Of a stretch of 64,000 nt of DNA, positions 35,201-64,000 are shown piece after piece. The stretch is from Cytospora piceicola (lineage: Eukaryota > Ascomycota > Sordariomycetes > Diaporthales > Cytosporaceae), in NCBI GenBank assembly GCA_023375675.1, contig JALQBC010000002.1, positions 2,073,960 through 2,137,959 on the forward strand, read 5' to 3'. The notes under the pieces were generated by a model. The model did not search any database, was not told the origin of the DNA, and saw only the letters and a program-made list of their open reading frames with translations. Position 1 is the first letter of the stretch; the number at the start of each line of letters is the position of its first letter. The position numbers and the translations under genes were made by a program.

Positions 35201-35729
35201 CATCGTCCGAGTCGGTCAGGTCGGCGGTTCCAGTCTAGGTGCACACGTGTGGGCAGATCAACCCTGGATATCTGCCATCATCCGTACTTCGAAGACACTT
35301 GGGCTTTTTCCCAGCCCAGTCGCGCCCATTGATTGGATTCCAGTGGACGATCTTGCTACCATTTTGTATAGCATCATTCTCCAGCAACCTACATCAGAAT
35401 CAGGGGTACCTGAGTTCTTCAATGTAGTTTCTGAGCGACAACCATGGAATGTGCTTATAGACGTCCTTCGCGGGTTGGAGCCCAGTATTGTCTCCGAAGT
35501 CGTGTCACTGCCTGACTGGATCAACAAACTCCGTCAATCGGCAGATCTGAGTTCCGCAGACGTTGCAAAGTTTCCGGCACTGCGCCTGCTGGAATTCTAT
35601 GAAGACTTGGGCAGCGGGTCAAACTCTTTGGAGTATGCAACGGAGCACACACAAACTGTTTCTGGCCTGGACCTCGGTCCTTTAGGACAGGAATTGCTTG
35701 CATCTTGGCTGAAGACTTGGGATCTGTAA
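32273..35729 (+). CDS. NRPS-like A-T-R reductase (adenylate-forming reductase)
   Basis: Six exons: 32273-32566, 32623-32884, 32937-33094, 33146-33170, 33217-35020, 35120-35729, introns of 46-99 nt, giving 1050 aa with every junction in frame. An adenylation domain covers about 1-560, with the phosphate loop SSGSTGLPKP at about 181-190 and YYGRRDDI near the hinge. A carrier domain has DFFAHGLDSIQT, where Ser598 should take phosphopantetheine. A thioester-reductase domain begins at 698 with GSTGYIG, the NADPH loop, and has the catalytic pair Tyr852 and Lys856 in YGQSK. Such enzymes activate a carboxylic acid, load it on the carrier and release it as an aldehyde or alcohol; there is no condensation domain. 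Neighbours are not obvious tailoring enzymes, so it may act alone or with the cluster about 8 kb to the right. The substrate cannot be read from sequence by eye. Confidence 0.92.
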
Positions 35730-39347: not shown

Positions 39348-40313
39348 CCATACCGCGCACTGGTGGGGTGTAAAGGTCATTATAGTGATCTTCACAGGTA
39401 GAACGGTAGGTTTACTAACCTAGTGATAATTTCTGATTGTAACAAACTATCGCTATGAAGACCTTTGTGCTAAGTCTGACAGAACCTTTAAGGAGCCCTT
39501 ATTTTAGGGATTGATTCGACCTTTGACGATACCTTAACAGATGTGACGGAGGCCTTTTTCTAAAGGTTGCTGTAAGCCTAAAGGAGACCTTTTGATCGAA
39601 GTAGGCTTATATTGATCGAGGTGGACTTGTTTTGATCGAGGTGGACTTGTTTTGATCGAGGTGGACTTGTTTTGATCGAGGTGGACTTGTTTTGATCGAG
39701 GTGGACTTATTCGATCGAGGTGTACTTGTTCTCGAGGTAATTATAAAAGGAAGGTGCGTTGCTTTCTCGAGGTGACTATCGAAGGTTTATATACGTACTA
39801 CGCTAAGGTACGAAGACTGACCGTTGAAGATTCTCTTTGCCGTTCTGATACGCTAGTTCCCTTACGATTTGAAGGTTTATAACGAAGGCCTTCGATTGAT
39901 CTTTATTGAGATTGATCTTTGTCGAGATTGATCTTAATGGATTGACCTCGATTGATCCGGAGGCTGGCGTACTTACCTTCGGTCTTAGGAAATCTGGTGA
40001 TAGATTCTAGTAAAGTCTTTCGAGAAGGGAAGGCACCTACGTAAGCCGCCGGAAAGGTATCTACGTACCTAAGTACCTAGAAATAAGGTAGCCTTAACAG
40101 AAGAAGGATCGCCCTTTTGCTTTTTGGTAGCTTTCTTCTCGTGGTTACCTTTTTCGAGAAAGATCACCTTTCGTACGAGTCCATCATTTTGTTTTAAAAT
40201 ATAGGTCCTGAGATAGTCTTCTAACTTTAAGATAGATTCTAAACTCTGGGACTACTATTCTATTGGCAAGGGTCCTAGTGATTGCTATTACACCCCACCA
40301 GTGCGCGGTATGG
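39348..40313. mobile_element. 966-bp TIR element inserted in the chitinase relic
   Basis: Perfect 26-bp terminal inverted repeats at 39348-39373 and 40288-40313, beginning CCATACCGCGCACTGG on the left. The element is flanked on both sides by TGC (39345-39347 and 40314-40316). Removing the element and one TGC rejoins the chitinase codons EYA-LSM in frame, which fixes the insertion boundaries independently. It contains no transposase frame, so it is a non-autonomous (MITE-like) DNA transposon. A 3-bp target duplication suggests the PIF/Harbinger or CACTA groups; the internal CACTGG...CCAGTG would fit CACTA-like ends, but with extra bases outside. Assignment to a superfamily is tentative. Confidence 0.88.
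39589..39728. repeat. 20-bp tandem repeats inside the TIR element
   Basis: About seven copies of a 20-bp unit containing TGATCGAGGTGGACTTG. The central copies are identical and the outer ones diverged. Further GATTGATCTT-type degenerate repeats follow at 39890-39960. The period is not a multiple of three, so it is not coding. Confidence 0.85.
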
Positions 40314-43206: not shown

Positions 43207-44312
43207 ATGGATGATTCGAAAAGCAGCAAGGGCACTATCCTGGTGACAGGCACCAATGGAACTCTCGGAAGCGAGACTGTGTCTCAGCTCCTTTCGACGC
43301 CCGAGCTGGCAGCATACCACGGCATCTACACTGTTCGCAATGCAGAGAAAGCTCGCGTTCTCGGGCTTGCCCTCCAGTCCGGGAAACACTCCCATGCACA
43401 TTCCCACAATGTCATTTCTCTAGACCTGGCTGATCTTGATAGTGTCCGCGCTGTGGCCGGAAAGATTAACCAGCAAGTCGCTGGTGGCGAGATTCCACCC
43501 ATCCGAGCCCTGATCCTCAACGCTGGCTACCTCGAACTTACTACTCAAGCATGGACAACCGATGGCTTTGATATGGCTTTCGCCTGCAACTATCTCGGCC
43601 ATTGGCTGCTGACTTTGCTGCTGCTGCAGTCCATGGATCGTGATATGGGCAGGATTGTTGTTGTCGGAAGCGAATCTCATGACCCTCACAACCCAAAGAG
43701 CAAGGCGGCGTTCAACCACGAGAAATGGCTGAATTTCATCCACGATATTCATGGTAGTGTGCCGATAGCCAAAGGCACATGGAGTACTTCTAAGGAGGAC
43801 CCATCCTTCCACTCTGGATTTCGCCGCTACGGCGCTTCTAAGTTTTGTCAGGCTCTAATGATGTATGTTCAATATCCCCTTGTAAGGAAACAAATTCACG
43901 CTAACCAACGAGCAGTCCGGAGCTCCAACGCAGGCTCAATACTGATCCAGCGCTTGAGAAACTTTGCATCCTCGGCGTGGATCCCGGGTCAATGCCAGGA
44001 AACTTGACACGCCGTGGACCATGGATCATACGAGTTTTTCTCTTCAGACTCGTTATGCCCTGGCTGGCTCCCATAATGGCATGGCTGCAGCCTAATGGAC
44101 CATTGAGTACTGTCAGGATGGGTGCAGCCGATGTCATCGCAACTGCGTTGGAGAGAGGCGAGTCTCCCAAGGGCATGTATTTTTACAGGTCAGGGATTTC
44201 AGAGATGACTTCTGAGGCGAAGGATGAGAAGAAACGAGAGAGGCTTTGGGTCGATACTATAAGGTATACACAGCTGAAAGCGGGTGAGACTGTTTTGGCG
44301 AACTGGCAGTAA
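43207..44312 (+). CDS. Short-chain dehydrogenase/reductase
   Basis: Two exons, 43207-43862 and 43916-44312 (53-nt intron with GTATGT donor and a CTAAC branch site, phase 2), giving 350 aa. Classical SDR features: TGTNGTLG cofactor loop at about 14-21, DLADLDSV after strand 3, LNAGY, the catalytic Ser strand IVVVGSES, and YGASK (Tyr-x3-Lys). After splicing, ELQRRLNTDPALEKLCILGV and DPGSMPGNL follow, as in retinol-dehydrogenase-like fungal SDRs. The NAD(P)-dependent reaction and substrate are unknown. It is intact although it lies between AT-rich relics, and it is the leftmost gene of the proposed secondary-metabolite cluster. Membership is inferred from proximity only. Confidence 0.88.
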
Positions 44313-45027
44313 TGCAAAGGGGGAGATGTCGCTGGATGGCACAATGGAACAGTCGAACGTTGGCAACGAAGGACCCCAGGACGCAGGCTTCTCTGATAGC
44401 ACATTGTAGAGGCTCCCAAAGGAGGCGGAAGACGACCCTGAGGACCCAGGACCGAGCTCTCCACCTTAACCATTCGAATGCGACACCCGAGAAGCTGGAC
44501 AGAACAGTGATTATGAACACAGCACCCCAAGCGGCGATAAAGTGGTCGGTTGGGATGACCGAGGCACCAAATATGCCGATAAAAAGGCCCCGGCACATCG
44601 GTAATCAGTATCAGTACCGACGATGTGCCGGACGAAGCATATCTGGCAGATGCAAAGGACGGCAAACCCCTAGACACAGACACAGACAACGATAAATCCA
44701 GAACTAGAGGAAATAATTAAACCAACGCAGCTCCCAGATAGGTATATACCCCGTGAACTAGAAGACTACATTCAGACGGTGCCTAAGATAGCCGGGCTAT
44801 AGCCCGACTGGCGCGAGCACTAGACCTCCTCTTTGATGCATACGAATATATAGATATCGAGAAATTAGCCAATAAGATTAAGGAGAAAGTGGAAAGTCAG
44901 GATTTTCAGTGTTTATTCGCTAAGCTACAGTAGGTCTCCAAAAAGTATTATTACACTTACAGATCAGCAACATCCGGGCTATATATCACCCAATAATATA
45001 ACTACTGATTATGCCCGAAAGTCAATC
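44313..45027 (+). pseudogene. Intergenic region with degenerate coding fragment
   Basis: Between the SDR and the transporter. At about 44700-44960 the plus strand reads IIKPTQLPDRYIPRELEDYI and, in another frame, LDLLFDAYEYIDIEKLANKI, separated by stops, so a small decayed gene of unknown family is likely. An 11-bp-arm hairpin (CCGGCACATCG and its complement) lies at about 44591-44635. Confidence 0.35.
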
Positions 45028-46538
45028 TTAGACCTGCACCTTAAGCACCCACCCAGTCCTACTCATCCGTGCCGCCACCAGAGCCCCCACACCTAGCAAC
45101 ATACTACTCGCCGCCCACATCTGCGCTGGGAGGTAACCTCCCCCGCTCGCTTGCACGATGGCGCCTCCGATGGGACTACCCGTCAGACTGGCGAATGCGA
45201 CAATGCTAAAGACCATGCCCATGCGCGTGCCGAGCTGACTTAGGTCGTCTGTTAACGCGGCCAGAGAGACGGCAAAGAGCGAATGAATGAAGCTGGCCAC
45301 GAAACCATAGGCGAGCGCGAAACCGTATAACGAGCCGTGCGTATGCCTCACGGCTGGCCAACAGTACAACACTAAAGATACGAACGAGGCAGTCGGAATA
45401 GCAGTGTTCAGGGGCCCGAGAAAGCGAGTCGCGATAAATCCAGGTATGATGCGCCCGGGTATTCCGAGGGCGTTGGTGAGGAGCAGGAGATTAATGGAGT
45501 CCAGGGAGGTAAAAGACGCATAGGTGTAACCGTAGAGATCGATCTGGCGATAATCACGGTCAGATTCATTACCGAGAAGGAGGAGATAGGCACATACGTA
45601 GTAGAAGGCGAAGTACACAGCCCAATAGACGAAAAAGAAGCCAACACAAAAGAATATGTACGATAGCTCCTTGAAGGCATCGAAGGCGAACAAAGGGCCG
45701 GATCTACGAGCTGGAACGCGTACGCGTAGGAGCAAGTTGATGATGATAGACACGAAAAGCGTCACGAAGGCCATGCTGCGTATTGTCCAGCTGAATCCTG
45801 GGTACGCACGTCAGGCTTCTGTTTGAAGGAAAGACGTAATAAAACAGGGGCATACTCACCAACGCGAGGAAGCAATTGTTGGACCATGGGCGGATACACC
45901 AAACCACCAGATCCTGCGCCCGACGCAATGATTGCAACTGCCAGAAACTTTCTCGCCTTAAAGTACGACGATGGCACTGAAAGGCCAGGCATGTACAGAA
46001 TACCCATTCCGAGCCCCATACAGACACCCTGGGCGAGGAAAAGCTGGTAGTACTGCGTCGCCAAACTCGTCATAAACATGCCAAAGACGACCAACACTGT
46101 TCCAACAAGGACAGCCTCGTGAACAAGACCTGCGTCACTTGCCCGACCAGAGACGGTGCCTACCAGCAGGAGTGTAAAGATTTGTACTGTACCAATCCAT
46201 GAGACGGTCGATGGGGCGGCTTGCAGCATCTCTTGGTAGGTGGACTGGAAATTGCCGAAGCTGGTAATTAGACCCCAAGTAACAAAGCACATCAAGTGTC
46301 CTGCCAGAACCTGAAGCCATGCCCTGATGCCGCCATCAGGGGGAGGTCCTGGGTCCTGAGTTGGAGGGGCTGGGAACAATCCCAAATTCCGACGAGACCG
46401 AAGCGGCACAGGTGTAGCCTCTTCGAGTATGTTCTGAGTTTTGACCGGCCATGCCTCGATCCCCCTAGAGAACGCTGGCACGTTTCGTTTCCCCTCAGGA
46501 CTTTCTTCTTCAATGCCACTCTGTATTACAGATGCCAT
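45028..46538 (-). CDS. MFS transporter, monocarboxylate (MCT) type
   Basis: Minus strand, two exons: 46538-45860 and 45797-45028 (62-nt intron, GTGAGT donor, phase 1), giving 482 aa with about 12 helices. The N terminus is soluble and includes PPPDGGIRAWLQVLAG, the [D/E]G[G/S][W/F/I] entry motif of MCT-like carriers, followed by FGNFQSTYQE, GRASDAG, GMGILYMPGLSVPSSYFKAR (the YF..RR/K-type motif of MCTs) and AIIASGAGSGGLVYPPM. The second half has GRIIPGFIATRFLGPLN and a cytosolic end. Fungal MCT-type genes inside metabolite clusters are often exporters. Here export of the cluster product is inferred from position. It is intact. Confidence 0.88.
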
Positions 46539-47009
46539 GAGCGCTTTGTTCGATATACAAAGGCTATCCCCTAACGAATCGAAGTGTCTGACGACTGCGA
46601 CGTAGCGTCCAGGATTGCTATATATACGCTACACGAGAGCAGCCTTAAGTTAGAAGGAATTAAGAGAGAAAGAAATTGGAGGAGAGAATTATAGCCTTCA
46701 GCGTTTAGAGTATTTGGTTACTTGAGTATAATTATAATAGTGAAGTACCCGAGCACACATGTGCAGACGGAAATGGCACAAACCTTATCCACAAGTCAGC
46801 CGGGCTGAACAACCATCGCCCTTTCCAATAATACTACGGACGAGCCGTGAATGGTTTGAAGCTATTAGCTACTGTACTTATTGAGTGAATACTGTGGTAC
46901 AGTCGCACTGATATGGAGGCAAGGTTCTCATGATCTTTGGCGATTTTCCTGCTTTGTGGGGGCCACCTACTGTAGTAGGTAGGTATGGCTGGCCCCTACG
47001 GATACCTCT
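46539..47009. other. Intergenic region next to a TIR element
   Basis: AT-rich sequence with no frame. It is the promoter side of the MFS gene. Confidence 0.4.
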
Positions 47010-47680
47010 TAACATACGCCTTTGCCTACACTAGTAAAACTGTATCTCCTATTGGTTAAAGCAGTAGGGAGGTATAAAAAGCTCGGGCTAAATACGTAGT
47101 AGGCCGTAGTCACTTTATATACTTATTTCCGAAGCAGAATAAGTATATATACGAGAAATCTAAGGTCGGTAGACGCGAGGTAGGTTTTAATAGTCGTCGA
47201 AGGCCTAGTAATAGCATTAAATAGGTAGCTAGAATATCGTAGCGACAACTGTTTTAAACCGAGAAAAATCGAAATTTAATACTTTTTATAAAGATAAAAG
47301 CGACTATCGGCTTAGATTATCGCTTTTATCACACGTCGTAATGTTTTAAAGCGATTTCGATTAAGTATAATTAAAGGTTATAAGGATAGTTCTAGTTAGT
47401 AGATAAAATTCGAGAAATACGTTCCCGATTAAGTAAGCGGTAGTAAACCTTAACCTTATATATAATAACTAGAACTTTAACGAAGTTAGCTAAAACTATA
47501 CTATTTATATCGCAGAAAAAAATAGATACCTTTTTAAAGCTAATATAAATTAAATTCTGACTTTAAAATAGGTAGTTTATAGGGTAGTTGTTAAGAAAAC
47601 TAGTAGGTTATACGAGCAGGGGTTTAGTACTGTTAAGTATCTGTTCCTACTTCTACTAGTGTAGGCAAAGGCGTATGTTA
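47010..47680. mobile_element. About 670-bp TIR element flanked by TA
   Basis: Perfect 27-bp inverted repeats at 47010-47036 and 47654-47680 (TAACATACGCCTTTGCCTAC at the left end). If the outermost TA on both sides is the target duplication, the element spans 47012-47678, as expected for Tc1/mariner/pogo-type insertions. The interior is AT-rich, full of stops and RIP-like, with no transposase. It is either a MITE or a degraded mariner. It lies between the transporter and the precursor gene. Confidence 0.8.
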
Positions 47681-48031
47681 GGAGATACTACGTACAGTAA
47701 CTAACTGAACCTTGGAATGTTTCACCGTGTTCATGACTCCATTTTATTATTATTAAAGAGTCATGAAGATCAGTGACGCAAAGAAAGCAACAGTTTCAGC
47801 AGGATCACGAAAATATACGTGGCATCAACAGTTGTCATTTATCAAATAGGCAGCTAGAGTGATTGCGCTTCACGTGTCTAGTGAAACTATACCCAATCAT
47901 GAACCGCATCTTATAAGAAGATCACTCAAGCCCCCTGTGATGACATTATCTACCTCTTGGAGCTTCAAATGTTGATCACACTCAGACCAATGTTGCTCGC
48001 CGGCTGTTGGACGCCACAGAGAATTCCCACC
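47681..48031. other. Intergenic region, 3' side of the precursor gene
   Basis: No gene seen. Confidence 0.4.
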
Positions 48032-48392
48032 CTAATAAATATTCTCAGCATAGGAAGAGGCGGCGTTCTCGCCAACTTGCAGCATTGGGTCGGTCTCAAA
48101 GTTGGCTCGCTTATCGCTCTCTGCATAGGAAGAGGCGGCGTTCTCGCCAACTTGCAGCATTGGGTCGGTCTCAAAGTTGGCTCGCTTATCGCTCTCTGCA
48201 TATGAAGAAGCGAGCCTGTCAGCCACTTGCATTATAGAGTCTGGTTCGAGGTTTGTATCAAGGCAAAGTTCAAGGACTATCTTGGAGACATCAGCGGGCT
48301 GCGCGGGTTGCTAACTTACCAGGGACGGGAGCCGCAAAGCAGGGTGCCACTAAGGCCAGCGATATAATGATGATACTGAATTGGGAGAACAT
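48032..48392 (-). CDS. Secreted Kex2-repeat protein, putative RiPP precursor
   Basis: Minus strand, exons 48392-48320 and 48276-48032 (43-nt intron with GTAAGT donor, GCTGAT branch and GATAG acceptor, phase 1), giving 105 aa. Residues 1-20, MFSQFSIIIISLALVAPCFA, form a signal peptide. The mature part contains three related units ending SSYAE (residues 48-52, 73-77, 98-102). The first two are followed by SDKR, with Lys-Arg at 55-56 and 80-81, and the spacing is exactly 25 residues. The last unit ends NIY. Kex2 cleavage after KR would release peptides that each carry the Tyr-containing SSYAE motif, the layout of dikaritin-type RiPP precursors (ustiloxin/phomopsin class) and other Kex2-processed repeat proteins. 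The UstYa-family gene starts 792 bp away in the opposite direction, which supports this role. Alternatives are a repeat effector or a pheromone-like precursor. Unspliced, the frame ends after PVPGKLATRAAR. Confidence 0.75.
48048..48262. repeat. 75-bp tandem repeat encoding the 25-aa units
   Basis: Copies 48048-48122 and 48123-48197 are identical over 75 bp. A third, diverged copy follows at 48198 to about 48262. It is in frame with the precursor gene (75 = 25 codons). Complete identity of two copies points to recent duplication or gene conversion, although RIP acts on longer repeats nearby. Confidence 0.93.
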
Positions 48393-49184
48393 AGTTGTAA
48401 ATTTGTTGGCTTGAATGGTGTTGATAGAATACAAATACCCATTGTTAGGACGGGTGCTATGGGGGGCCCGCGAATTATTTATGTTTCTTTCCCTCTCCTG
48501 TTGTGTAGGACTTCGTTCACGTACCGTATGCCCATTTCCTCCTGCCAACAGCCAAAAACCAAGGCGACGAGGATGTGAAGGCTGTGCAGTTCTGACATCA
48601 TTGAGTATGGGATGAACAACAAGCGAGTCCACAAAACAAGCTGATATCTGGCTTTAACTGGACAACAAAAAACTCAATGTGGGTTGTGTATGCATGACTT
48701 TCGTTGATAGCAACATAACGACCGTGGGTCTGACTGCAACATTGAAGGACGTGAACGACTATCATGCCGGTGTTACGAACAGTGTGCCCCTTCAGGTTCA
48801 ACCCGTCAGTTCTTTTGTAGACTTCCCATCCCGATGATGGTGATAATGAATATGTGACCATGTTCGGGGTCCCGAGACGGTCAATTTTAGAAACAGATAT
48901 GACAGCGGGTCGATCGCACATACATTCATAGGGTACACCAACTCCCAGGAATAAGGTCTAGAACTGTCGGTATTTGGCTGGGAAGTACTAAGTACTTAAG
49001 TATGTAGACGGACCGCCATTCGGCATGTGACATCGTATCAATTAGTACAAATAGAATGAATATTGACCTCGACTCAGGATGGACATTTCGTCTCTTTCAC
49101 ATCCTTGATGTAATTTATTTCATACCTCATGTGCCCTGACTGGTCTATCTGACATTTGCTTGCAATTGACCCAGTACCATCGCC
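48393..49184. promoter_or_regulatory. Divergent promoter between precursor and UstYa genes
   Basis: This 792-bp interval separates the start codons of two genes read away from each other, so co-regulation is likely. On the precursor side an ATAAATAA-like TATA element lies about 85 bp upstream of the ATG (near 48474-48482). No gene fits inside. A CGG...CGG pair (about 49009-49024) could be a Zn2Cys6 site, but that is weak. Confidence 0.4.
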
Positions 49185-50118
49185 ATGATCCCTGCTCAAA
49201 ACTATTATCCGCTGCCTGGCAAAGAGAGCGCGGAATCCAATGTACATTTTTAAATGACCCAGCCCCTTTCCGTGTCGAACAGAAGCGCAGACTCAACAAG
49301 CTGTGGCATTGGGTTTTCCATGGAATAAGCCTTCTCGCGATAGTAGGGTTGCTCGTCGGTCTACACCTAGTTGCTCACACGAATGGGAACAAATGTTGGG
49401 ATATGTTCAATTATTATTGTGAGATTACTAGGAAGACGGAATCAAAGATTGGTACGCTAACTCGTTTTCAGCACCTGTGAACGATGCAGTCAAGCCACAT
49501 CCTTACATTCACAAGGTCTTCAATGGCTCGCTATGGCACCAGAGTCCATGGAAAGGCCCACCCACCGACGAGGTCGAGAAGGCGTGGTATGAGATCATGA
49601 AATGTGAGCACAATTGTCGAGTAAACCATCAGGCGGTCCTTGAACTGATTGAGGGATGTGTAGATGGCATGATCAGTGTCTCTGGGGAAGACATCGAGAA
49701 GGTGCAGCACCCTGACTGGTCGGCTCAGTTCCCAGCCGAGGTTGGCGGTGGATACATTGCGGCTACTGTAGGGACGCACCAGTTGCACTGCCTGCATTAC
49801 ATCTGGCAGGACCACTACATCGACTACTTTCCCAAGACGCTGGATAAGAAGCAGCGTGTTCCGGAGATGTATGAGCGCCACTACGAGCATTGCGTCGACT
49901 ACATCCGCCAGAGCCTAATGTGCCAATTCGACACGGGGATCATCCCTTACAACTGGGTTCTGGACCATCAGAACCCGACCCCAAATGCTAATACCCACCA
50001 CACCTGCGTCGACTGGGATGCCTTACAGGTCTGGCTGGAGGACCGTGCGGTCGAGGTCCCGGACGGGTTCGTGTGGAGACAACCCGAGGACGCTGTTTCG
50101 ATGGAATGGAACCCTTAG
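49185..50118 (+). CDS. UstYa-family (DUF3328) oxidative cyclase
   Basis: Three exons: 49185-49241, 49283-49418, 49472-50118 (introns of 41 and 53 nt), giving 279 aa. The N terminus MIPAQNYYPLPGKESAES is cytosolic. One membrane helix lies at about 27-50 (WHWVFHGISLLAIVGLLVGL). FNGSLWHQSPWKGPPTDEVEKAW begins the DUF3328 domain. The two diagnostic HxxHC motifs are present: H167-Q-L-H-C171 (in GTHQLHCLHYIW) and H201-Y-E-H-C205 (followed by VDYIRQSLMC). UstYa/UstYb proteins are copper- or metal-dependent oxidases that cyclise Kex2-released peptides in the secretory pathway in ustiloxin- and cyclochlorotine-type routes. Its place next to a Kex2-repeat secreted protein makes a RiPP cyclase role plausible. 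The gene is intact, with both canonical motifs, and introns remove the early stop that the unspliced frame would meet. Confidence 0.92.
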
Positions 50119-51348
50119 GCTTCAAAAGAGTGAGGAAGAGCAGGATATAGCTGTTGGATGTTACCCCATGTTACAATAGTGTTGGGCGGCGATATACGGG
50201 AGGGTCATCTATTACTTGTTATGTTCAATTTTATGTCGGGACTTTGATTTGCATTATGTACAATGAAGAAACCCCAGTGTTCCACAACACTGGGCTTATT
50301 GGCCAATGGTCTTATCAATACCGGGCCAAAGACTATGGCCTCACGGTGATTGTCGTGTATGACCTATCACATCTGATGTCGCGCGTCCCACGGTCTGTCT
50401 TCATGGTCAAGAACGTAAGGATGGTTCGTTATTTATTTCTGTAACACCAAGTTACAATATTATCGTTGCAAATGCAGTCGAGCCAACGAGACGGAAGGGC
50501 ACAGACAGCGTTGACTTGCTTGTACGGGGCACATGGGTGCATGAGGCTGAATGCTGTGGGGGCGTAAGCAATTACGTGTACAGGGCACAGATTTTACTAT
50601 TGTCAGTGGAGGCTATAGGACAAGGCCTACCGATTTGCTCGAAGACCTTGAGAATTGGGTCAATGGAAGATCAGGACTTCATATTACGTTAAGATTCGCC
50701 TATAGCACTCAGTATTGTTGATCCCCTCCACAGGTGACCTCCACTGGCAAAATTAATCCCTGTGGCCTATATTTCGGCCTGGTACCCCAGTAGAAGCTTG
50801 CAGCTCCCGCTATTTTAACAGAGTATCTCTGTGGAGGAGTTAATGCTACCCAGAAACCGGTTTCTTGTATGTGATTATGTACATATGTAGGAAGGTGCTT
50901 AAGAGTAGGCGCAACGATGGCACAATGTGCGGTGAACGACTTGTTGTAACGGTGACATCCCATGGGATGTAACGATGGAAAATATCTCGGCCAAACGCCC
51001 AAATACTGCTCCGGTCACAGGTTATCTACTTCTCTGTCGCTGTTGCTTGGTGGAAAATGGATGAGGCTGGGGCATGATTGCATATTGTGGCCCCCAAATG
51101 CAAGAATTGCATGATTTTCGCGTTGCTCCCGAACAGCAGAGAGATGCGTACAGGAACCTATTCACGGCCAGATCTGCTGCACTTACTACATTAGAAACTG
51201 AGTCATGGCTTCAGGCGGCTTATAGTTTCGAGAGAGCCATAGCCTGTTCGACTTCAAAATCTCCCCTATTAGGTGGTCGCTGCACAGAAGACTGTTCCAC
51301 AACCCGCACTCGCCGATACTATTGCCACCTGGGCATCTGCTGCACAAC
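50119..51348. other. Intergenic region
   Basis: No supported gene. An inverted repeat with 9-bp arms (CCCAGTGTT and its complement) sits at about 50275-50296, roughly 160 bp after the UstYa stop, and may mark the transcript end. The remainder holds only short non-ATG frames and the promoter of the rhodopsin-domain gene. Confidence 0.45.
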
Positions 51349-52830
51349 ATGACGGGTATCGCGACGACACAGAGCGCTCTTGCAGTTGGATTTTCCTTCC
51401 CAGTAATTGATGGCATACTCGTGGGTCTGCGCTTCTACATACGCCGCCACATGAAGGCGGATATTCAAATCGATGACTGGTTTTGTATTCCAGCATGGGT
51501 GCGTCTGCCTTGCCTCGCCAATGAAGACGTTCACGGGTGATCTGACTCTCCGTATAGATTTGCTTGACGGGCTGCTGTGTCTCGCTTCTGACAGGTAGTT
51601 CTCCCCATCGATGACCAGGGTAACTATTGAATGGTGCTCATCAAGCCTCCAGGAGTCTTCAAGGGATCATACGGTGATGCAGCCGTGACTGACCCCGAAC
51701 ATGTCACAGACCAGGAGCATACCCTGGCGCAGGTATGTCGACCCATCTGTTCCAATCTTCAAGTATGTGCTACCATTAACAGCCTTCCAGGTTACAGCAG
51801 CCTTAGTTATCCTCTGGATGGGGGCAAACTTTTTTATCAAGCTGATCATGCTTTTCTTCTACCGCCGCATATTCGTCGGCCGCGTATTCAACATCTGCAA
51901 CTGGGTACTCATTGGGCTTTCGGTCATTTGGTTCGTGTACGCGATACTTTCATGGCTGCTTTACTGCGGCAAGAATCTTGAAGCAGACTTTGAAGGTGGC
52001 TGGCTGGTGTGCCCGATGTGGGGATTTGAGATCCAAATGGGTGTTTTTGCTTTAGATAGCTTCATTGACCTGTGTCTACTGGTGCTACCCATACCCTTTG
52101 TAAGTGGACCACCCCTCCCGAGCTAGAAGGAATTGGAACTGATGCCTAGGTTTATGGCCTCGCGTAGGTATGGCGCCTCCAGTTGGACCTCAAACGCAAG
52201 ATTGCAATCACAATCGTGTTCATCATTGGCGGCTTGTACGTTTTCCACACCTAAATATGATACTTTCAAACACCCGAGTTGACCTACCTCTAGCGCCTTC
52301 GTCGCCGGCCTCAACAATACCATCGTCCAGCTCGTCTACCTTACTGAGCCCAGCCTGGCTTCTGAGGGAGGTGGTGCCAACTTCTTCCAAGGTAGGTGAA
52401 CGTAAGCTTCTGTCCGGACCTGTCCTTTTATGGCTGCTGATCACGCGCAGGATCCTCCCTCCTCTTCTCTAACTGGCCCGCGATCGAGATTGGCGTTGGT
52501 TTGTTGGCGTCCAACCTCCCACATTTGTCCCTACGACTTGCCCATGCCCTTGCGCAATCCCTGCCACGCGCCCTGCGCATTTTCTGGAACTCTCTAAGGA
52601 GAGCAGTGGCGGCGACATCTCTACACTCATTACGGCACTCTCAGGGGAGCGGGTACAGGGGCACCATTAGGTACGAGGCCCCACAGCAAGGCGCGGAGAG
52701 CTGTCAAAGCCTGCACCCAAAGCTGGTAGGTCGGCATGAAGAGGGAAAAACAAGGACAGGGTTCTTGAAGCAAAGCTCCGCACAGAGTGCACAGAGCCTT
52801 GAGCTGCGGGACTTGGAATCAAACAACTAG
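51349..52830 (+). CDS. Fungal rhodopsin-domain seven-helix membrane protein
   Basis: Seven-exon model: 51349-51498, 51558-51594, 51653-51732, 51791-52099, 52168-52235, 52294-52391, 52451-52830, giving 373 aa with all junctions in frame. Family signatures of the fungal integral membrane (PTH11-like, no CFEM) group are RFYIRRHMKADIQIDDWFCI, CLTGCCVSLLTG, VTDPEHVTDQEHTLAQVTAA, MLFFYRRIFVGRVFNICNW, CLLVLPIPFVWRLQLDLKRK and AFVAGLNNTIVQLVYLT. The C-terminal about 100 residues are soluble and rich in Ser, Arg and Gln. Such proteins are frequent in fungal metabolite clusters with unclear roles (proposed receptor or membrane-scaffold functions). The second and third exons are the least certain. Confidence 0.82.
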
Positions 52831-53034
52831 GTACTGCAGCTTCACTAGGATGCCCCCGACGTACTTGTGCCTTTGAATGTCCATAGTGCTTTTTTACAAG
52901 CAGTAATAGACTTCAGTTGCTGTATAATTCAGATGTCTTCCGTTATTCAATCCACTGAATCACAGCACGAACTTTAGGATGGGCCTGAGCTTGTGAATGG
53001 ATTCAGAATCCTTTCCGTGGAAAGCAGTGCTCCT

Positions 53035-54231
53035 TCAAACATCCGTCTCACTGTACTCAGTCCAGTCCTTCCCACGCCAGAACTTCTGTCCACCTCTAAA
53101 CGAATGCTCAATCTTCTCCTTTGCCATCGCTTCCATCCTCGCCTCAAAATTCAGAATACTACTGTCCGTGATACCTTCCTCAGCAAGTGTCCGTGCCAAG
53201 TCTGCGGCGCTTCGAATAGCCGTATCCCCACCGGAGCCACCCATGGGGCTCATTGGGTGTGCTGCATCGCCGATCAGCGTGACTCTTCTGGTCTGACCAT
53301 CAGAGCAGATCTGAATGTCTGGCTTGCTTGATAGAATAGGTACGCAGGCGGATGTCTCGTGCGTAGCGGAATCAAGGAGATGCTTCAGAGCAGGATGCCA
53401 GGTCTCGGACACTCGCGCCAGGTACTGTTTCTTCTCCTGCACCGTCTTCGGCAAGTGATCTGCGTACTGCGAAAATGCCGCGCAAACAACCCAGTATACG
53501 TAGTTGTCGAAGTCTGGCAGCTCGGCTTCGGACTCGAGTCGCACGCTCTTCGACCACTTTATCGGCTCGACGACCGTCTGCACGTTAGACTCGTGATCCA
53601 GAGACATGAACCAGCTCAATATCTCTGGCACTCCAAGTCCCCTTCTCAAATCATCCGTCATTGGCGTTCGACCCCACATAGCCCAGCGTTCCAAATCAAG
53701 CAGCTTGCGACCTGGCTGGAACTGTTTTCGCACCCGGCTCTTGATCCCATCTGCGCCAACAAGGAGCTGTCCTCGTTCGACTGAGCCATCCGTAAATTTG
53801 ACCAGAACTAGCCCTCCTACGATCTCGTAGGAGTCGAACTCCTTCTCGTAGCGAATGTTATCCTGCAGTTCGAGAGAAGCGAGCATGCGGAGCCAGGTCC
53901 TGTCCAGGGGCATCGAGTACGCAGGGTCTACCGGCTCAGGCCTAGCAAAGTCGAGCTTTCGGGCGTCTACATATCGTGGCGCAAAGTGGTATCTCTCAGC
54001 TGCAGTGCGTTGAAGCAGGTCCTGGAGGCGGGGCGAGAGGACGCTGTCAAGAGCGGCCTGGCCGTCTCTCGAGATGCGTAAACGGTGGCCCTGCTGAACA
54101 TGCGATCGTGCGTGGCGCTCAAAGATGCGGAACGGAACAGAACGAAGTCGCAATCCTTGCGCAAGCGTAAGTCCAGCGACGCCGGCACCGACAATTAGAA
54201 CAGGGACATTGACTGGGGTTGGTGAACTCAT
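53035..54231 (-). CDS. FAD-dependent monooxygenase (group A type)
   Basis: Intronless, 398 aa, ATG at 54231. It has the dinucleotide-binding VLIVGAGVAGLTLAQGLR at about 11-28 with GxGxxG, the acidic/basic end of strand 2 in RIFERHA, the DG-type motif LLVGADGIKSRVRKQF in the middle, and the second FAD motif LIGDAAHPMSPMGGSGGDTA near 310-330. These place it with the salicylate-hydroxylase/FAD-binding-3 family often found in fungal metabolite clusters, where it hydroxylates or epoxidises the product. It is transcribed toward the rhodopsin-domain gene (204 bp between stops) and is the last intact gene before the telomere, about 9.7 kb from the repeats. The reaction on the proposed peptide is unknown. 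Confidence 0.92.
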   Translation of the reverse strand: MSSPTPVNVPVLIVGAGVAGLTLAQGLRLRSVPFRIFERHARSHVQQGHRLRISRDGQAALDSVLSPRLQDLLQRTAAERYHFAPRYVDARKLDFARPEPVDPAYSMPLDRTWLRMLASLELQDNIRYEKEFDSYEIVGGLVLVKFTDGSVERGQLLVGADGIKSRVRKQFQPGRKLLDLERWAMWGRTPMTDDLRRGLGVPEILSWFMSLDHESNVQTVVEPIKWSKSVRLESEAELPDFDNYVYWVVCAAFSQYADHLPKTVQEKKQYLARVSETWHPALKHLLDSATHETSACVPILSSKPDIQICSDGQTRRVTLIGDAAHPMSPMGGSGGDTAIRSAADLARTLAEEGITDSSILNFEARMEAMAKEKIEHSFRGGQKFWRGKDWTEYSETDV

Positions 54232-54604
54232 GGTTAACGGGAAGTATATATGTATGTTATACCTTTAAAGAAATAAAGCTGAAATAAGAATAGCTTTCTA
54301 ACTGCGGTTAAGTATATAGAAAGTCGGACTATTTATTTCCGACGCACCCTTTTTATCTGGAAATTAAGGTTCCACTTTATGCAGGTAAGGCGGAACAAGC
54401 GCCTTTTATTAGACGGCAGTAAATGTAATTACAGGAATACCTTAGTTTATATAAATAAGTAAGTTATATAACTAAGGAGCGGCGGTAAGACCGCCTGCTA
54501 AGAAGGCCTTCTGTTAAGAAGGATCGGAATCTTAATAACTACTTAGGTAGATATACCGCTTAAGCTATAAAGGAGACGATAGAGTAAGGCCTGTTAAGCG
54601 GCGA

Positions 54605-54860
54605 AATAATTAACTAACTAACTAACTTATTATTTATTACATTTATTTACTTATTTACTTACCTTCTTACTTACTAACTTATTAACTTACTAACTTATTA
54701 ACTTACTTACTTACTTAATAAGTAAGTAACTAACTAACTTAATAACTACGTTACTTACTAATATATTAAGTAACCTACTAGCTAACTTATTAACTAACGT
54801 ATTAGTTAACTTACTTACTAACTTACTTACTTATTTACTTACTTATTTACTTACTTATTT
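54605..54860. repeat. TTAC/TAAC tetranucleotide array
   Basis: About 250 bp of mixed CTAA, TTAC and TTAT units with frequent phase changes. It could be a RIP-softened simple repeat. Confidence 0.85.
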
Positions 54861-55028
54861 GCTTAATTCGAATTTTAAGGCTTATATAAGCCTTTAGTAA
54901 AGAATAAAGAAAGGAAAGGCTAGAGTTCGAGTTAAGAACTTTAAATACTTTAAGAATTAAAACTATTAGCTTTAATAGTAAACCTACTTTAAAGGCTACG
55001 ATTTAATTAAATATACCGTTTAATAGCA

Positions 55029-56815
55029 TTAATAGTAATTATTAATTAAAATAAGGTTTTATTTTAATTACCTTTTATAGGTAAGGCTAAAGGTAAGCGT
55101 TAATTAATATATTTAAAAGCTTAGTTTTAAAACCGGCTTTATATACCGAGTTTAAGTTAAATTTATATAATTTAACCTAAATCGGGATCCTTATAAAAAG
55201 GGCTTTAAAACACTATTTTTATTTATTTTTTATCTTATTAAGAGAGGTAAATATTCGAGACTTTAAGGTAAACCTTACGGATTCGCCTCTCGCCCTCTCT
55301 ATTATAGCCTTAACCTTAGCCTTTTTTATAGCCCTGCTTTTTATTAATATAGTTTAATATATTATTATAATAACTATAATTAATTAAAGCTTATTACTAT
55401 AATAACTGCTATTATAAGAAGCTTATTATAAATATAGCTATAGTAAGTTTATTATAAAAGTAATATTTTTATAGTTATATCTTAATAAAATTAAATAAAT
55501 AAAATATATTATAATAATATAAATTAAACGCTTTAAAACCTTATTTTTATTATTTTTATATCTAATTTAATAGAATAAATATTAACCTTATTATATTAAT
55601 AATACTATTATATATAATATACCTTTAATTCTTTATATAATTAAATACTTTTTAATAGTTTTTATAAAGTTAAAATTAAAAAGAATAAAACTTTAGTTTT
55701 AATATTATAATATTTAACTTAATAAAATAAATATTATTATTATTATAGTAAATATACTATTATAGTTATTATACTTATTATTTTTAATATAATAAAATAA
55801 TTTAAATATTTATAAAAAGCTAAAAATAAAATAAATAAAAATCTATTAGTAGTTTTTTAATATTTAACTTAATAAAATAAATAATAACCTTATTATATTT
55901 TTAATATATTATAGTTAATATACCTTTAATTTTTAATATAACTAATAGTAATTATTAATTAAAATAAGGTTTTAGTTTAATTTTTCTTTATAAGTAAAGT
56001 TAAAAGCTAAGCGTTAAATTATTAATTTAAAAACTTAGTTTTAAAACCGGCCTTTTATATTAAGTTTAACTTTAAATTTAATAATTTAACTTTAATCGGA
56101 ATTCTTATAAAAAGAGCTATAAAACTTTATTTTTATTTATATTTTATCTTATTAAAAGAGGTAGATATTTAAGACTATAAGGTAAACCTTAATAGTAATT
56201 ATTAACTAAAATAAAGTCTTATTTTAGTTCTTTCTTATAGGTAAGGCCGGAGGCCGAGCGCTAATTAAATAGTCTAAGGGCTTAGTTTTAAAACCGGCCT
56301 TTTACGTTAAGTTTTACTTTAAATTTAATAATTTAACCTAAATCGGAATCTTTATAAAATAAGCTATAAAACTCTATTTTTATTTATTTTTTATCTTATT
56401 AAGAGGGGTAGATATTTAAGACTTTAAAGTAAACCTTATAAATTTACCCCTCGCCCCTCCTATTATAACCTTAACCCTAGCCTTTTTTACAGCCTAATAG
56501 TTATTGTTAACTGGAATCAGGTCCTGCTCTAATTACCCCCTGCAGGCGGGGCCGGAGGTAGGGCGCCGATTAGCTAGTCTGGGGGCCTAGTTTTAGAACC
56601 GGCCTCCTACGCCGAGTTTAGCTCCGAATTCAATATTTTAACCTAAATCGGAATCCTTACGAAAAGGGCTATAAAACCCTATTTTTATTTAATTTTTATC
56701 TTATTAGGGGGGGTAGATATTCGAGACTCTAAGGTAAACCCTACGGATTCGCCCCCCACCCCTTCCGTTATAGCCCTAACCCTAGCCTTTTTTATAGCCC
56801 TGCTTTTTATTAATA
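55029..56815. repeat. Four copies of a ~300-bp repeat, graded decay
   Basis: Related copies begin at about 55029, 55944, 56191 and 56495. Each contains the conserved block around CTTAGTTTTAAAACCGGC followed by an AATCGG..CTTATAAAA-type segment. The copy at 56495 is much richer in G and C (CCTAGTTTTAGAACCGGCC); the other three differ from it mainly by C-to-T and G-to-A. A larger duplication is visible: sequence from about 55300 onward reappears about 1466 bp downstream (for example the block at 55321 and at 56787), continuing into the 150-bp satellite. Confidence 0.85.
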
Positions 56816-56989
56816 TAGTTTAATATATTATTATAATAACTATAATTAATTAAAGCTTATTACTATAATAACCGCTACTATAAGAAGCTTATTATAAATA
56901 TAGCTATAGTAAGTTTATTATAAAAGTAACGATTTTATAGTTATTTCTTAATAAGATTAAATAAATAAAATATATTTTTATAATATATA

Positions 56990-57905
56990 TTAAACGCTTT
57001 AAAACCCTATTTTTATTTTTCTTATATCTAATTTAATAGAATAGATATTAACTTTATTATATTAATAGTTTTATTATAACTATTATATCTACTATTCTTA
57101 ATATAATAAAACGATTTAAATATTTATAAAAAGCTAAAAATAAAATAAAGAAAACCTTATCGGTAGTTTTTTAATATTTAACTTAATATAATAAATACTA
57201 TTATTATTATAGTAAATATTCTATTATAGCTACTATATCTATTATTTTTAATATAATAAAACGATTTAAGTATTTATAAAAAGCTAAAAATTAAATAAAG
57301 AAAACCCTATCGGTAGTTTATTAATATCTAACTTAATATAATAGATATTAATATTACTATAGTATATATTCTATTATAGCTACTATACTTACTATTCTTA
57401 ATATAATAAAACGATTTAAATATCTATAAAAAGCTAAAAATAAAACAAATAAAACCTTATCGGTAGTTTTTTAATATCTAACTTAATATAATAGATATTA
57501 TTATTACTATAGTAAATATTCTATTATAGCTATTATACGTCTTATTTTTAATATAATAAAACAATTTAAATATTTATAAAAAGCTAATATTAATAAGAAT
57601 AAAACCTTAGTTTTATATTTTTAATACTTAAGTTAATATAAAAGATATTACTATAGTTAAAATAAGTATACTATTATTATTATTATAATTCTTACCTTTA
57701 ATATAATAAAATAATTTAAATATTTTTAAAAAGTTAAAATAAAAAAAAATAAAACTATATCTTTAGTTTTTTAATACTTACTTTAATAGAATATATATTA
57801 CTATTATTATAAAAAACTAATTATTATAGCTATTATACTTACTATTTTTATTATATTAATATAATTTAAATATATTTAAAAGCTAAAATTAAAAGAAATA
57901 AAACT
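56990..57905. repeat. 150-bp-period satellite, about six copies
   Basis: The landmark ATAATAAAACGATTTAA and its variants occurs with landmarks at 57111, 57261, 57411, 57561, 57711 and 57861, that is at exactly 150-bp spacing. Units share the GGTAGTTTTTTAATAT-type segment and drift progressively to the right. A related stretch occurs at about 55500-55930. There is no coding potential. Confidence 0.88.
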
Positions 57906-57939
57906 ATATTATTAACTATATAATATTTAAATATATTAT

Positions 57940-58270
57940 ATTAAGGAAATAAGTAAGTAAATAAGTAAATATATATATAAGTAATATATTATATAAATAC
58001 TTTATTAAATAAGTAAGTAACTAAGTAAGTAAGTAAGTAAGTAAGTAAATAAGTATATATATATATATAAGTAATATATTATATAAATACTTTATTAAAT
58101 AAGTAAGTAATTAAGTAAGTAAGTAAGTAAATAAGTAAGTAAATAAGTAAGTATATATATATATAAGTAATATATTATATAAATACTTTATTAAATAAGT
58201 AAGTAACTAAGTAAGTAAGTAAGTAAATAAATAAATATATAAGTAAGTAAATATATATTTATATATAAAA
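57940..58270. repeat. AAGT/AAAT array with ~90-95-bp higher-order unit
   Basis: Blocks of AAGT repeats separated by a shared segment GTAATATATTATATAAATAC that recurs at about 57981, 58071 and 58166. Confidence 0.85.
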
Positions 58271-58464
58271 AAGATATTATATACTATATATATATATAAT
58301 AAAAGTAAAAAGAGAAAAAAAAGAAATCTTTATTAATTTAACTACGATTTTATTTAATTAAATTACGAATTATTTAAATTTACAAATTATTTAAATTTAC
58401 GATTTTATTTTATTTAATTTACGAATTTTTACAATTTTAATTTTATTACGAAAAGCACTGCACA

Positions 58465-58531
58465 GAGGATTTAAACTAAAGACCTTTAAATTACTATATT
58501 TATTATATAACTACCGACTATACTATCTAAT
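58465..58531 (-). repeat. tRNA-derived relic (SINE-like), RIP-altered
   Basis: On the minus strand the sequence shows an A-box-like TAGTATAGTCGGTAG, a B-box-like AGGTCTTTAGTTTAAATCC at tRNA spacing, and a tail CTCTGTGCAGTGC. The B box differs from the consensus GGTTCGAATCC by transitions. It is most likely the tRNA-related head of a SINE or a dead tRNA copy. Confidence 0.45.
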
Positions 58532-59283
58532 CTATTATAGAATCTATTTAATTATAAACTTACTTACTTTAGACCTTTTATAAGAAGAGTTGCTTTTTAA
58601 ATTAGTAAAGGGGGGAGGTAGGGGGGATTTATTTACTAAAGGGTTTTACTAGGTTTCCTTTTTAAGCTATTTATATTAATAAAATCGAGTAAAAGAAAAA
58701 TACTATAAAATCGAATAAAATTAAACGTATATAATATTAAATTTAATAGTTAAAAAGTATATAAATAAGCAAGCTAGCTTATATTTTAAAGTCGAATTAA
58801 TTTAAAAAAATAATATTTTACTTATACGTTACTAGTAATATATAACCGAAAAGTATATATAAAAATAAAGTAAGTATACCGTTTTATAGGTAAAATTTAA
58901 TAATATTAGTAAAATAAAAAAAGATCTAATAAAATTTAGATTTAAAAGGAGTTAAGTCTTTTAATAAATAATAAATATAAAGATTATTTATTATTTACTA
59001 TTTTAATACTTTATACCGCTTATATAAGGGAATTAAAATATATGTTTTATACCGTTATTTAGAAGAAAAAACAGGCTTTATTATAGTATACTTTATTATA
59101 TACTAATATTAACTCTAAGCGGTAAAGTAGTATTAAGAAAAAACAAAAATATTAAAAACTCTTTTAAATCGGGCCTATTAAGGCTAATAACTTAACACCG
59201 GGTATATATATAGATAAAGTAACTTAATATATATATAATAAAGCTATAAGTAACTAATAATAAAAAGAAAAAAGTGTAACTTT

Positions 59284-59353
59284 TCGGAACTCGAACTTAG
59301 TACCTTTACTATAGTATTTACACGGGTACCGTGTTTTTTAGCCAATCTAATAG
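59284..59353 (-). repeat. Second tRNA-derived relic
   Basis: On the minus strand it reads from TAGATTGGCTAAAAAACACGG (A-box position) through a stem-like CACGGTACCCGTG to the B box AGTTCGAGTTCC. A full cloverleaf is not evident by eye. It is different from the relic at 58465, and may be part of a retroelement or a tRNA pseudogene. Confidence 0.4.
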
Positions 59354-61084
59354 TATCGATATCTAGCCTAATACTAAGAATAAAAATAAACTAAAAATAG
59401 GGTTTAGATCGCTTTAAGCTTATAAACCCGATTTAGGTAGTCCGGAGTCGATATCTATTTTATTTAATTTTTAAACGTAGGTTAAAGTTATAGGACCGAA
59501 TTTGCCCTACTATTAGCCGCCCTACAAATCGCGGGGAATAGCCTTTATAAGCTAGTTTTTAAGCCGTTTTCTCGTATAAAGTAGTGTAGTTAGTTAAGGC
59601 GTAGGCTCGAATTAGTAAAATTACTACGTACAGGCCCTGTAGAAAAAAAATAAATTTAATAGGCTAGTTAACAGGATTTATTTACTACCTTCCGTAGTAA
59701 AAAGGGTTTTAAAAATATTTCCTTATCGAGAGTATAAAAGGGTTATCCGATATATTTAATCTATTAATTAATGTTTGTAATACTTTGCTTACTTATTAAT
59801 TTATTTCTAGCCCTACCTAGTTTTAAATTAATAAGCTTTAAGCCGCCCCTCTTTTTTTATTTTTTTAATAAACGTAATATATAGTAAAATAAAGTTAATT
59901 TTCCTATATTTTTATATATAGGTTAATCGACTAAAAAAGCATCCCTTCCTTGTCTTCTTCGTCTCCTAAATCAATTCCTTCCTCTTTACAATCTACTATT
60001 TCCCCTCGTTCGTACCGGTCTTTTTATTTTCTATATTAAATTAATAAATAAAAATTAATTTAAATAAATAAATAAAATAAACTTACTGTAAATAAGCTAT
60101 ATACGCAGCTATTTTCTTTAAAACCTTTTTAATTTCGGCTATAAAAGTACGGTTTTACCGGTAAATTTCTTCTGTATTTAACAGACTTTTACCGTAACGA
60201 ATAAATTCAGGCTTAGAAGAAGGGTAAATTTATAAAAGAACCTGCCCTCTTTTCTTTAAAAAGTACTATAAAAGGTTTCGTTCGAATTTTAAGCCGTATT
60301 TAATTTTATAGGCTTAAAAATCGATTCTAACCTTCTTAAAAAAGGCTTTTATTATTTTAAATTCAGCAATAAGCTAGCAGATATTTTTATAGCTCTTGCT
60401 AGGTCTCGAATAAAGGTAATTAAAATAATAATTAATATAAGAATCTAAAGGGGTATCGGGACCCTTTAAATTAATATAAAAAAATGCTTTTATTATAGTA
60501 AATTATTAGGTATAAAAACCTAATATTACTAAAAGCTAAAAAAAGAAAAAAGAAAAGGAAATTAAATAGAAAGAAAAAGAGAAAAGTTGTATTTTTATAA
60601 AAGAAAATTAAAATTTTTACTTAGTAAGTACGCTTATTAATTAAGGTTAATTAGTAATTAAATTTATATTATTTATTATAATTTAATAATTTAGTATTTA
60701 CCTTTAATTACTTAATATAAAGAATAAAGAAATTATTTAAATTAGTTTAATTTATATTAAATCTCGACGAGTTTTTAATATTTTAATAGTTTTATTTTTC
60801 CTTTAGTATTTAGTTACCTTATACTTACCTTAGTATTTTTACTAGGTTTTTTTAAAAGTACGTTAGTATATGCGTGCCGGAAGATAAATTTAGTAGCCGT
60901 AAGTCGATTTTTTTAAAACCCTATACTAACTAATTAGTCGGCTAACTTAAACATATACTACAGCCTCCTATAGCGTACTACAGGGTAAAACGATATCGGA
61001 AGGACTGTAAGAGGGAAAAAAAAAATCGAGAAAAAAATTAAACTAATTTTTAAGCCTTTTTATAGTACTATTAAATTTTTATTA

Positions 61085-61325
61085 ATACTATTACCGCCGG
61101 TATTGCCTTTAAAAGATATAAAATATAAAAGGTGCTACGTTATAATAGTTACTTTTTAGTACTATTAAAAAAATTACAGACCTAAAAGATATAAAATACA
61201 GAGGGTGTTACGCTATAATAGTTACTTTTTAGTACTATTAAAAAAATTACAGACCCGGAAGATATAAAATATAAAGGGTATTATACTATAATAGTTACTT
61301 TTTAGTACTATTAAAAAAATTACTT
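61085..61325. repeat. 73-bp tandem repeat, about three copies
   Basis: The segment AGTACTATTAAAAAAATTAC recurs at about 61158, 61231 and 61304 (73-bp period), with intervening AAGATATAAAATA and ATAATAGTTAC blocks. The left part of a further copy begins near 61085. Confidence 0.85.
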
Positions 61326-61559
61326 AAAAAGGTATTATATATAAAAATACCTAGGCTTCGAAACCGCCTGGCGATTTTATCGTCTAGTCTTTCTTTAAGC
61401 CTTATACAGCCTATAGAACTTTTAGAAACTACGGTGCCTATAGAATCTAGTAGTTTTATAAGGCTTATAGCGCCTTTAGAAAGTACTACGTCTAGCTTTA
61501 TATTAGAAATAAATTCTTTATTCCCTTTTATAGGGTTTTTATAAGGCTCGGGCCTTTTA

Positions 61560-63891: not shown

Positions 63892-64000
63892 TTAGGGTTA
63901 GGGTTAGGGTTAGGGTTAGGGTTAGGGTTAGGGTTAGGGTTAGGGTTAGGGTTAGGGTTAGGGTTAGGGTTAGGGTTAGGGTTAGGGTTAGGGTTAGGGT
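63892..64000 (+). repeat. Telomere, (TTAGGG)n
   Basis: About 18 perfect TTAGGG units running to the window edge, G-rich strand 5' to 3' outward, so this is the right end of a chromosome or the start of its telomere. The join with the TLH relic is direct. Confidence 0.99.

What the first reader, a model, noticed from the sequence alone, without database searches (positions are those of the whole stretch)
43207..54231. Candidate new fungal RiPP (dikaritin-like) cluster beside a telomere
Six intact genes lie in 11 kb between decayed sequence: SDR, MCT-type MFS exporter, Kex2-repeat secreted precursor, UstYa-family protein with both HxxHC motifs, rhodopsin-domain membrane protein and an FAD monooxygenase. 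Established: UstYa (DUF3328) proteins plus Kex2-repeat precursors define ustiloxin-like RiPP pathways. Seen: both are present and divergently arranged. Inferred: the six act together. I do not recognise this gene combination or repeat sequence as a described cluster. Only one UstYa gene and no tyrosinase or peptidase are in the window.
Basis: partly seen in the sequence, partly recalled or inferred. Interest (0 to 1): 0.95.

Follow-up and report, generated by a model that had tools for sequence, protein, structure and literature searches.

The report
Conserved fungal Kex2-repeat peptide pathway
Near a chromosome end, a fungus carries a small gene set that probably makes a modified peptide cut from a repeated precursor; the peptide sequence recurs almost unchanged in distantly related fungi, but its product and purpose are unknown.

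Summary
The precursor and UstYa genes are real. The precursor (48392-48032, minus) has a signal peptide and Kex2-delimited 25-residue repeats and matches 8 public hypothetical proteins: Cytospora, Hypoxylon, Xylaria relatives and the lichen fungus Letrouitia. In the last repeat 17 of 20 aligned columns are invariant in 9 of 9 sequences. The UstYa gene (PF11807, 136.8 bits; both HxxHC motifs) and the MCT-type MFS gene belong to the same unit: in Hypoxylon CI-4A the UstYa, precursor and MFS relatives bear consecutive locus numbers, and in 6 of 6 strains listed for more than one of them they share one contig length. A three-gene RiPP core is thus well supported; membership of the SDR, rhodopsin-domain and FAD-monooxygenase genes was not tested. 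'Intact' needs care: the UstYa N-terminal tail is frame-offset unless a 41-nt intron is spliced, the precursor acceptor site is ambiguous and repeat 1 is diverged. The repeat lacks the YxIx core of ustiloxin and phomopsin; gene composition recalls the asperipin-2a cluster. Most likely a new family of a known kind, product unknown. The repeat string is in no paper of the open library.

The parts
48032..48392 (-). Precursor gene: signal peptide MFSQFSIIIISLALVAPCFAAPVP (48392-48320), intron with donor at 48319 and acceptor at 48277, 48241 or 48226, then three repeat units
   Evidence: 8 public homologues, best E 7.7e-35
48182..48256 (-). Repeat unit 1, diverged (TNLEPDSIMQVADRLASSYAESDKR), possibly partly intron
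48107..48181 (-). Repeat unit 2 (ANFETDPMLQVGENAASSYAESDKR), Kex2-type KR at its end
48035..48106 (-). Repeat unit 3 (ANFETDPMLQVGENAASSYAENIY), C-terminal, no KR
49185..50118 (+). UstYa-family gene; introns 49419-49471 and 49604-49663; frame offset against homologues in the N-terminal tail before the membrane helix
49777..49791 (+). First HxxHC motif, HQLHC
49879..49893 (+). Second HxxHC motif, HYEHC
45028..46538 (-). MFS transporter gene (MCT type); introns 45859-45798 and 45597-45544
43207..44312 (+). SDR gene, one intron, probably 43863-43915; membership of the unit not tested
51349..52830 (+). Rhodopsin-domain membrane protein gene; a six-intron model is open; membership not tested
53035..54231 (-). 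FAD-dependent monooxygenase gene (FAD_binding_3), single exon; membership not tested

Best explanation
A ribosomal-peptide pathway with a three-gene core. The precursor enters the secretory pathway by its signal peptide; Kex2 cuts after KR and releases units of about 25 residues (ANFETDPMLQVG-xx-AASSYAE-SDKR); the membrane-bound UstYa oxidase modifies the peptide, most likely by an oxidative cross-link at its single tyrosine; the MCT-type MFS transporter moves the product or a precursor of it. Shown: gene anatomy, repeat structure, sequence conservation, shared neighbourhood in other fungi. Inferred: Kex2 cleavage, the UstYa reaction, the link site, transport and expression. The SDR, rhodopsin-domain and FAD-monooxygenase genes may be accessories or plain neighbours.
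For: Precursor family in Diaporthales, Xylariales and Lecanoromycetes with 17 of 20 last-repeat columns invariant in 9 of 9 sequences. UstYa, precursor and MFS relatives numbered M426DRAFT_316337, 316338, 316339 in Hypoxylon CI-4A, the window's order. MFS orthologues form one group of 29 of 43 rows, SH-aLRT 100. One precursor locus in the genome. In PMC7329392 22% of 7878 Kex2-repeat genes have a DUF3328 gene nearby.
Against: Linkage is read from contig lengths and locus numbers, not from sequence of those loci. No UstYa of Cytospora mali was listed, and of the 8 precursor hits only 3 (C. mali VM1G, CI-4A, FL0016) have a partner listed on the same contig; lists show 90% cluster representatives, so absence cannot be read from them. 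UstYa tail frame offset and diverged repeat 1 leave room for a decaying copy here. No expression or chemistry.
Confidence: 0.72

Rival explanations
1. All six genes are one biosynthetic cluster: SDR and FAD monooxygenase tailor the peptide and the rhodopsin-domain protein assists or senses.
For: All six sit in 11 kb without RIP flags in their bins; the asperipin-2a cluster has a reductase and a transporter beside precursor and UstY gene (PMC6514808 passages); ustiloxin uses flavin monooxygenases.
Against: No relative was checked for these three genes; the CGG-CCG promoter scan showed nothing common to all six; the rhodopsin-domain gene has no known role in such pathways (recalled).
Confidence: 0.25
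2. The repeats yield a linear secreted signal or effector-like peptide, and UstYa acts on something else or only trims it.
For: [quoted passage not shown] linear Kex2-repeat peptides exist (same section).
Against: UstYa next to the precursor by locus number in CI-4A; a single Tyr kept in each repeat.
Confidence: 0.15
3. A decaying subtelomeric copy: the pathway works in relatives but not in this strain.
For: UstYa tail frame offset, uncertain acceptor site, diverged repeat 1, a decayed inverted-repeat element inside the unit and RIPped flanks.
Against: The catalytic part of UstYa is open and 129 of 150 residues match CI-4A; MFS and repeats 2 and 3 are intact; a GT-AG splice would keep the UstYa frame.
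Confidence: 0.25

Closest known systems
Asperipin-2a cluster (aprA, aprY, aprT, aprR), Aspergillus flavus
   Same: Kex2-repeat precursor, one UstY-type gene, a transporter and a reductase, no tyrosinase (passages of PMC6514808 and PMC7329392)
   Different: Core FYYTGY in 8-residue repeats against 25-residue units with one Tyr; aprR is an isoflavone reductase, here an adh_short SDR of untested membership
Ustiloxin and phomopsin clusters (dikaritins)
   Same: Signal peptide, KR-delimited repeats, UstYa family; Tyr-Ala in the repeat as in YAIG, with acidic residues and KR after it (for UstA)
   Different: No YxIx core, no tyrosinase on this contig, no S41 match in the genome, one UstYa gene
Epichloecyclins (gigA, Epichloe)
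   Same: Longer repeats with KR sites and a Tyr-based ring (passages of PMC9233826 and PMC6514808)
   Different: Different core sequence (recalled); GigA relatives were not among the 8 hits
Kex2-processed repeat proteins (KEP) survey, PMC7329392
   Same: Same definition: secreted Kex2-repeat proteins, 22% with a DUF3328 gene nearby
   Different: In the part of Table 2 read the only type listing Valsa and Cytospora, G-7, has 1 of 50 with DUF3328 and lists neither Hypoxylon nor Xylaria; the supplementary table was not read, so the family may be in it

Membership tests
Kex2-processed repeat protein (KEP) | Signal peptide | tested here: met
   By inspection only: hydrophobic N-terminus ending CFA-AP; no signal-peptide program was run
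Kex2-processed repeat protein (KEP) | Near-identical repeats separated by KR or RR | tested here: met
   75-bp array, KR between units; KR or RR also in homologues
Dikaritin / UstYa-dependent RiPP | DUF3328 (UstYa) gene with HxxHC motifs beside the precursor | tested here: met
   linked in Hypoxylon CI-4A by locus numbers
Ustiloxin/phomopsin type | YxIx core in each repeat | tested here: not met
   Repeats read SSYAE; definition from PMC7329392 section 9
Ustiloxin/phomopsin type | Tyrosinase gene in the cluster | tested here: not met
   5 matches in the genome, none on contig C14
Ustiloxin/phomopsin type | S41 peptidase gene in the cluster | tested here: not met
   No PF03572 match in the six-frame genome search; a gene split by introns could be missed
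Asperipin type | Precursor, one UstY, transporter and reductase together | tested here: inconclusive
   All four kinds present; only precursor, UstYa and MFS shown linked in relatives
Dikaritin / UstYa-dependent RiPP | Cyclic product through a Tyr side chain | not testable with these tools
   Needs mass spectrometry
Six-gene biosynthetic cluster | SDR, rhodopsin-domain and FAD-monooxygenase genes linked to the core in relatives | not tested

The most novel reading that the evidence does not exclude
The whole stretch of about 21 residues, not a short core inside it, is the product: a UstYa-modified secreted peptide kept almost unchanged across Diaporthales, Xylariales and a lichen fungus of another class. 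It would be a conserved modified signal or interaction peptide rather than a fast-changing toxin.
Probability: 0.25. Interest if true: 0.65.

Novelty: new member of a known kind. Interest (0 to 1): 0.5.

Why it matters
UstYa-dependent Kex2-repeat peptides include microtubule toxins, yet few families have a known product. This one offers a three-gene core, a clear mass target (a peptide of about 21-25 residues with one Tyr) and several sequenced Xylariales carriers, so the UstYa reaction on a long peptide and the reason for its conservation become testable. PMC7329392 (section 9) says most Kex2-repeat types are unique at least at genus level; this one is in at least six genera by name and two classes.

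Tried and rejected
Chance repeat: rejected, homologues down to E 7.7e-35. Second precursor copy in the genome: the 2 matches are this gene's own exons. Horizontal transfer of the MFS gene from Xylariales: suggested by the quick tree (SH-aLRT 82-88 on the nesting forks), not supported by the AU test (17 rows against 8, p 0.284). Solved relatives of UstYa: 2 sequence hits up to E 1, best 0.28, and no fold match at E 0.001 among 77 Foldseek matches up to E 10, for a model of relative P0012 (50-row alignment, mean pLDDT 83.7). Shared promoter motif: a CGG-CCG scan found nothing common to all six. 44330-45000 and 47010-47690 have no second copy in the genome. In one search the repeat windows were anchored on SSYA[ED], so the invariance of those columns there is by construction; the unanchored alignment is the evidence used. 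The claim that the peptide is more conserved than its enzymes was weakened on checking: against CI-4A the last repeat is 19 of 21, but the UstYa part from GMISV onward is 129 of 150; I lowered the novel-case probability from 0.3 to 0.25 for this. Species: not established; 82% MFS identity to Cytospora mali suggests a relative of Cytospora, an inference.
Full report
What is there. The window is the end of contig C14 of a held 43.6-Mb genome and finishes in 18 TTAGGG repeats. Six gene models lie between 43207 and 54231 (starts and stops re-read). Pfam supports SDR, MFS_1, UstYa and FAD_binding_3 and, when spliced, Fung_rhodopsin. RIP criteria flag 12 of 64 one-kb bins, at 42-43, 47-48 and 54-64 kb. 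The 47-kb flag comes from a 685-bp piece with 37-nt inverted ends, 92% complementary, between MFS and precursor.

The precursor. It reads signal peptide, short intron, three units of 75, 75 and 72 bp. Units 2 and 3 differ by one synonymous codon over 21 compared; unit 1 against unit 2 has 10 amino-acid changes in the first 15 codons and none in the last 10. Part of unit 1 may be intron, since three acceptor sites keep the frame. The protein search gave 8 hits from 9 candidates, all named hypothetical: two of Cytospora mali, Hypoxylon fuscum, Hypoxylon CI-4A, Xylariaceae FL0016, Letrouitia transgressa, Xylaria cf. heliscus and Annulohypoxylon moriforme. In the last repeat 17 of 20 columns are invariant in 9 of 9 sequences. 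By taxonomy these include Sordariomycetes of two orders and a Lecanoromycete.

UstYa. One search gave 90 hits from 464 candidates, one of them the window's own; the nearest named are Daldinia loculata and Xylaria multiplex at 69%. Homologues place two introns and show that the window's N-terminal tail, ahead of the membrane helix, changes frame relative to them unless a 41-nt GT-AG stretch is spliced. Relatives without this offset exist. The catalytic part is open. In a quick tree of 36 rows the window falls in a set of 17, set off with SH-aLRT 96; that set also holds a long-branched Dothistroma row, so its limits are unsure. No solved relative was found by sequence or fold. The genome has 36 exon-level UstYa matches.

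Transporter. One search listed 120 of 442 hits. A group at 64-82% identity (P0099-P0128, P0131 and the partial P0210) stands apart from the rest of the list at 54% or less. In a tree of 42 of these proteins plus the window's, 29 rows including the window form one group, SH-aLRT 100. The window is closest to Cytospora mali.

Linkage. Each hit list prints a contig length. Within the orthologue groups, six strains are named in more than one list: C. mali (precursor, MFS), Hypoxylon CI-4A (all three), Xylariaceae FL0016 (precursor, MFS), Hypoxylon NC1633, Xylaria bambusicola and Viridothelium virens (UstYa, MFS). In 6 of 6 the lengths are identical. In CI-4A the locus numbers are consecutive, in the window's order. 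Outside the groups, a second Viridothelium MFS and the Pleopsidium flavum UstYa and MFS hits lie on other contigs, as paralogues may. Equal contig length is indirect evidence, and locus numbers are taken to follow gene order. No UstYa of C. mali was listed, and 5 of 8 precursor hits had no partner listed on the same contig; the lists show cluster representatives, so absence cannot be read from them.

Mechanism. From what is established for dikaritins (PMC6514808 and PMC9233826, passages; PMC7329392, passages, section 6 part 1 and section 9), Kex2 should cut after KR and UstYa should oxidise the peptide, probably at Tyr. This is inference. There is no YxIx core, so an ustiloxin-type ring is not expected, and no tyrosinase match is on this contig. 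The four left-hand genes recall the asperipin-2a set, but the SDR was not shown to belong.

Conservation. Against CI-4A the last repeat matches at 19 of 21 residues, the UstYa part from GMISV onward at 129 of 150 and the compared UstYa at 195 of 259, and MFS is 74% identical. The peptide is thus about as conserved as the catalytic part of its enzyme and more than the transporter. Whether the long conserved stretch is product or recognition sequence is open.

Literature. Eight searches: no paper holds FETDPMLQVG or the four Cytospora locus numbers tried; for the topic searches I read the listings. Passages read: PMC12048977, PMC6339444, PMC12533866, PMC8403587. The last reports a putative ustiloxin-like RiPP cluster in some Hypoxylaceae; whether it is this one cannot be told from the passages. 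Supplementary files could not be read.

Verdict. Real, conserved, and ordinary in kind: a new family of Kex2-repeat peptides with a UstYa enzyme. Three of the six genes are supported as a unit.

Noticed in passing
window 47003-47687: Decayed 685-bp element with 37-nt inverted ends and RIP signature between MFS and precursor; no second copy found in the genome
   Followed up: partly
window 54001-64000: AT-rich, RIP-flagged subtelomere with tandem arrays of 150- to 305-bp units, ending in (TTAGGG)18
   Followed up: no
window 33207-35726: Pieces of an AMP-binding, carrier and reductase (NAD_binding_4) enzyme of the NRPS-like kind upstream of the unit
   Followed up: no
own genome G000: 36 exon-level UstYa matches, several on the same contigs (C2, C54, C68, C79), so more such peptide loci are likely
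   Followed up: no
window 39590-39730: 20-bp unit repeated 7 times in a partly RIP-like stretch
   Followed up: no
window 19071-20438 and 26118-26870: A second MFS transporter and an FSH1-type serine hydrolase
   Followed up: no
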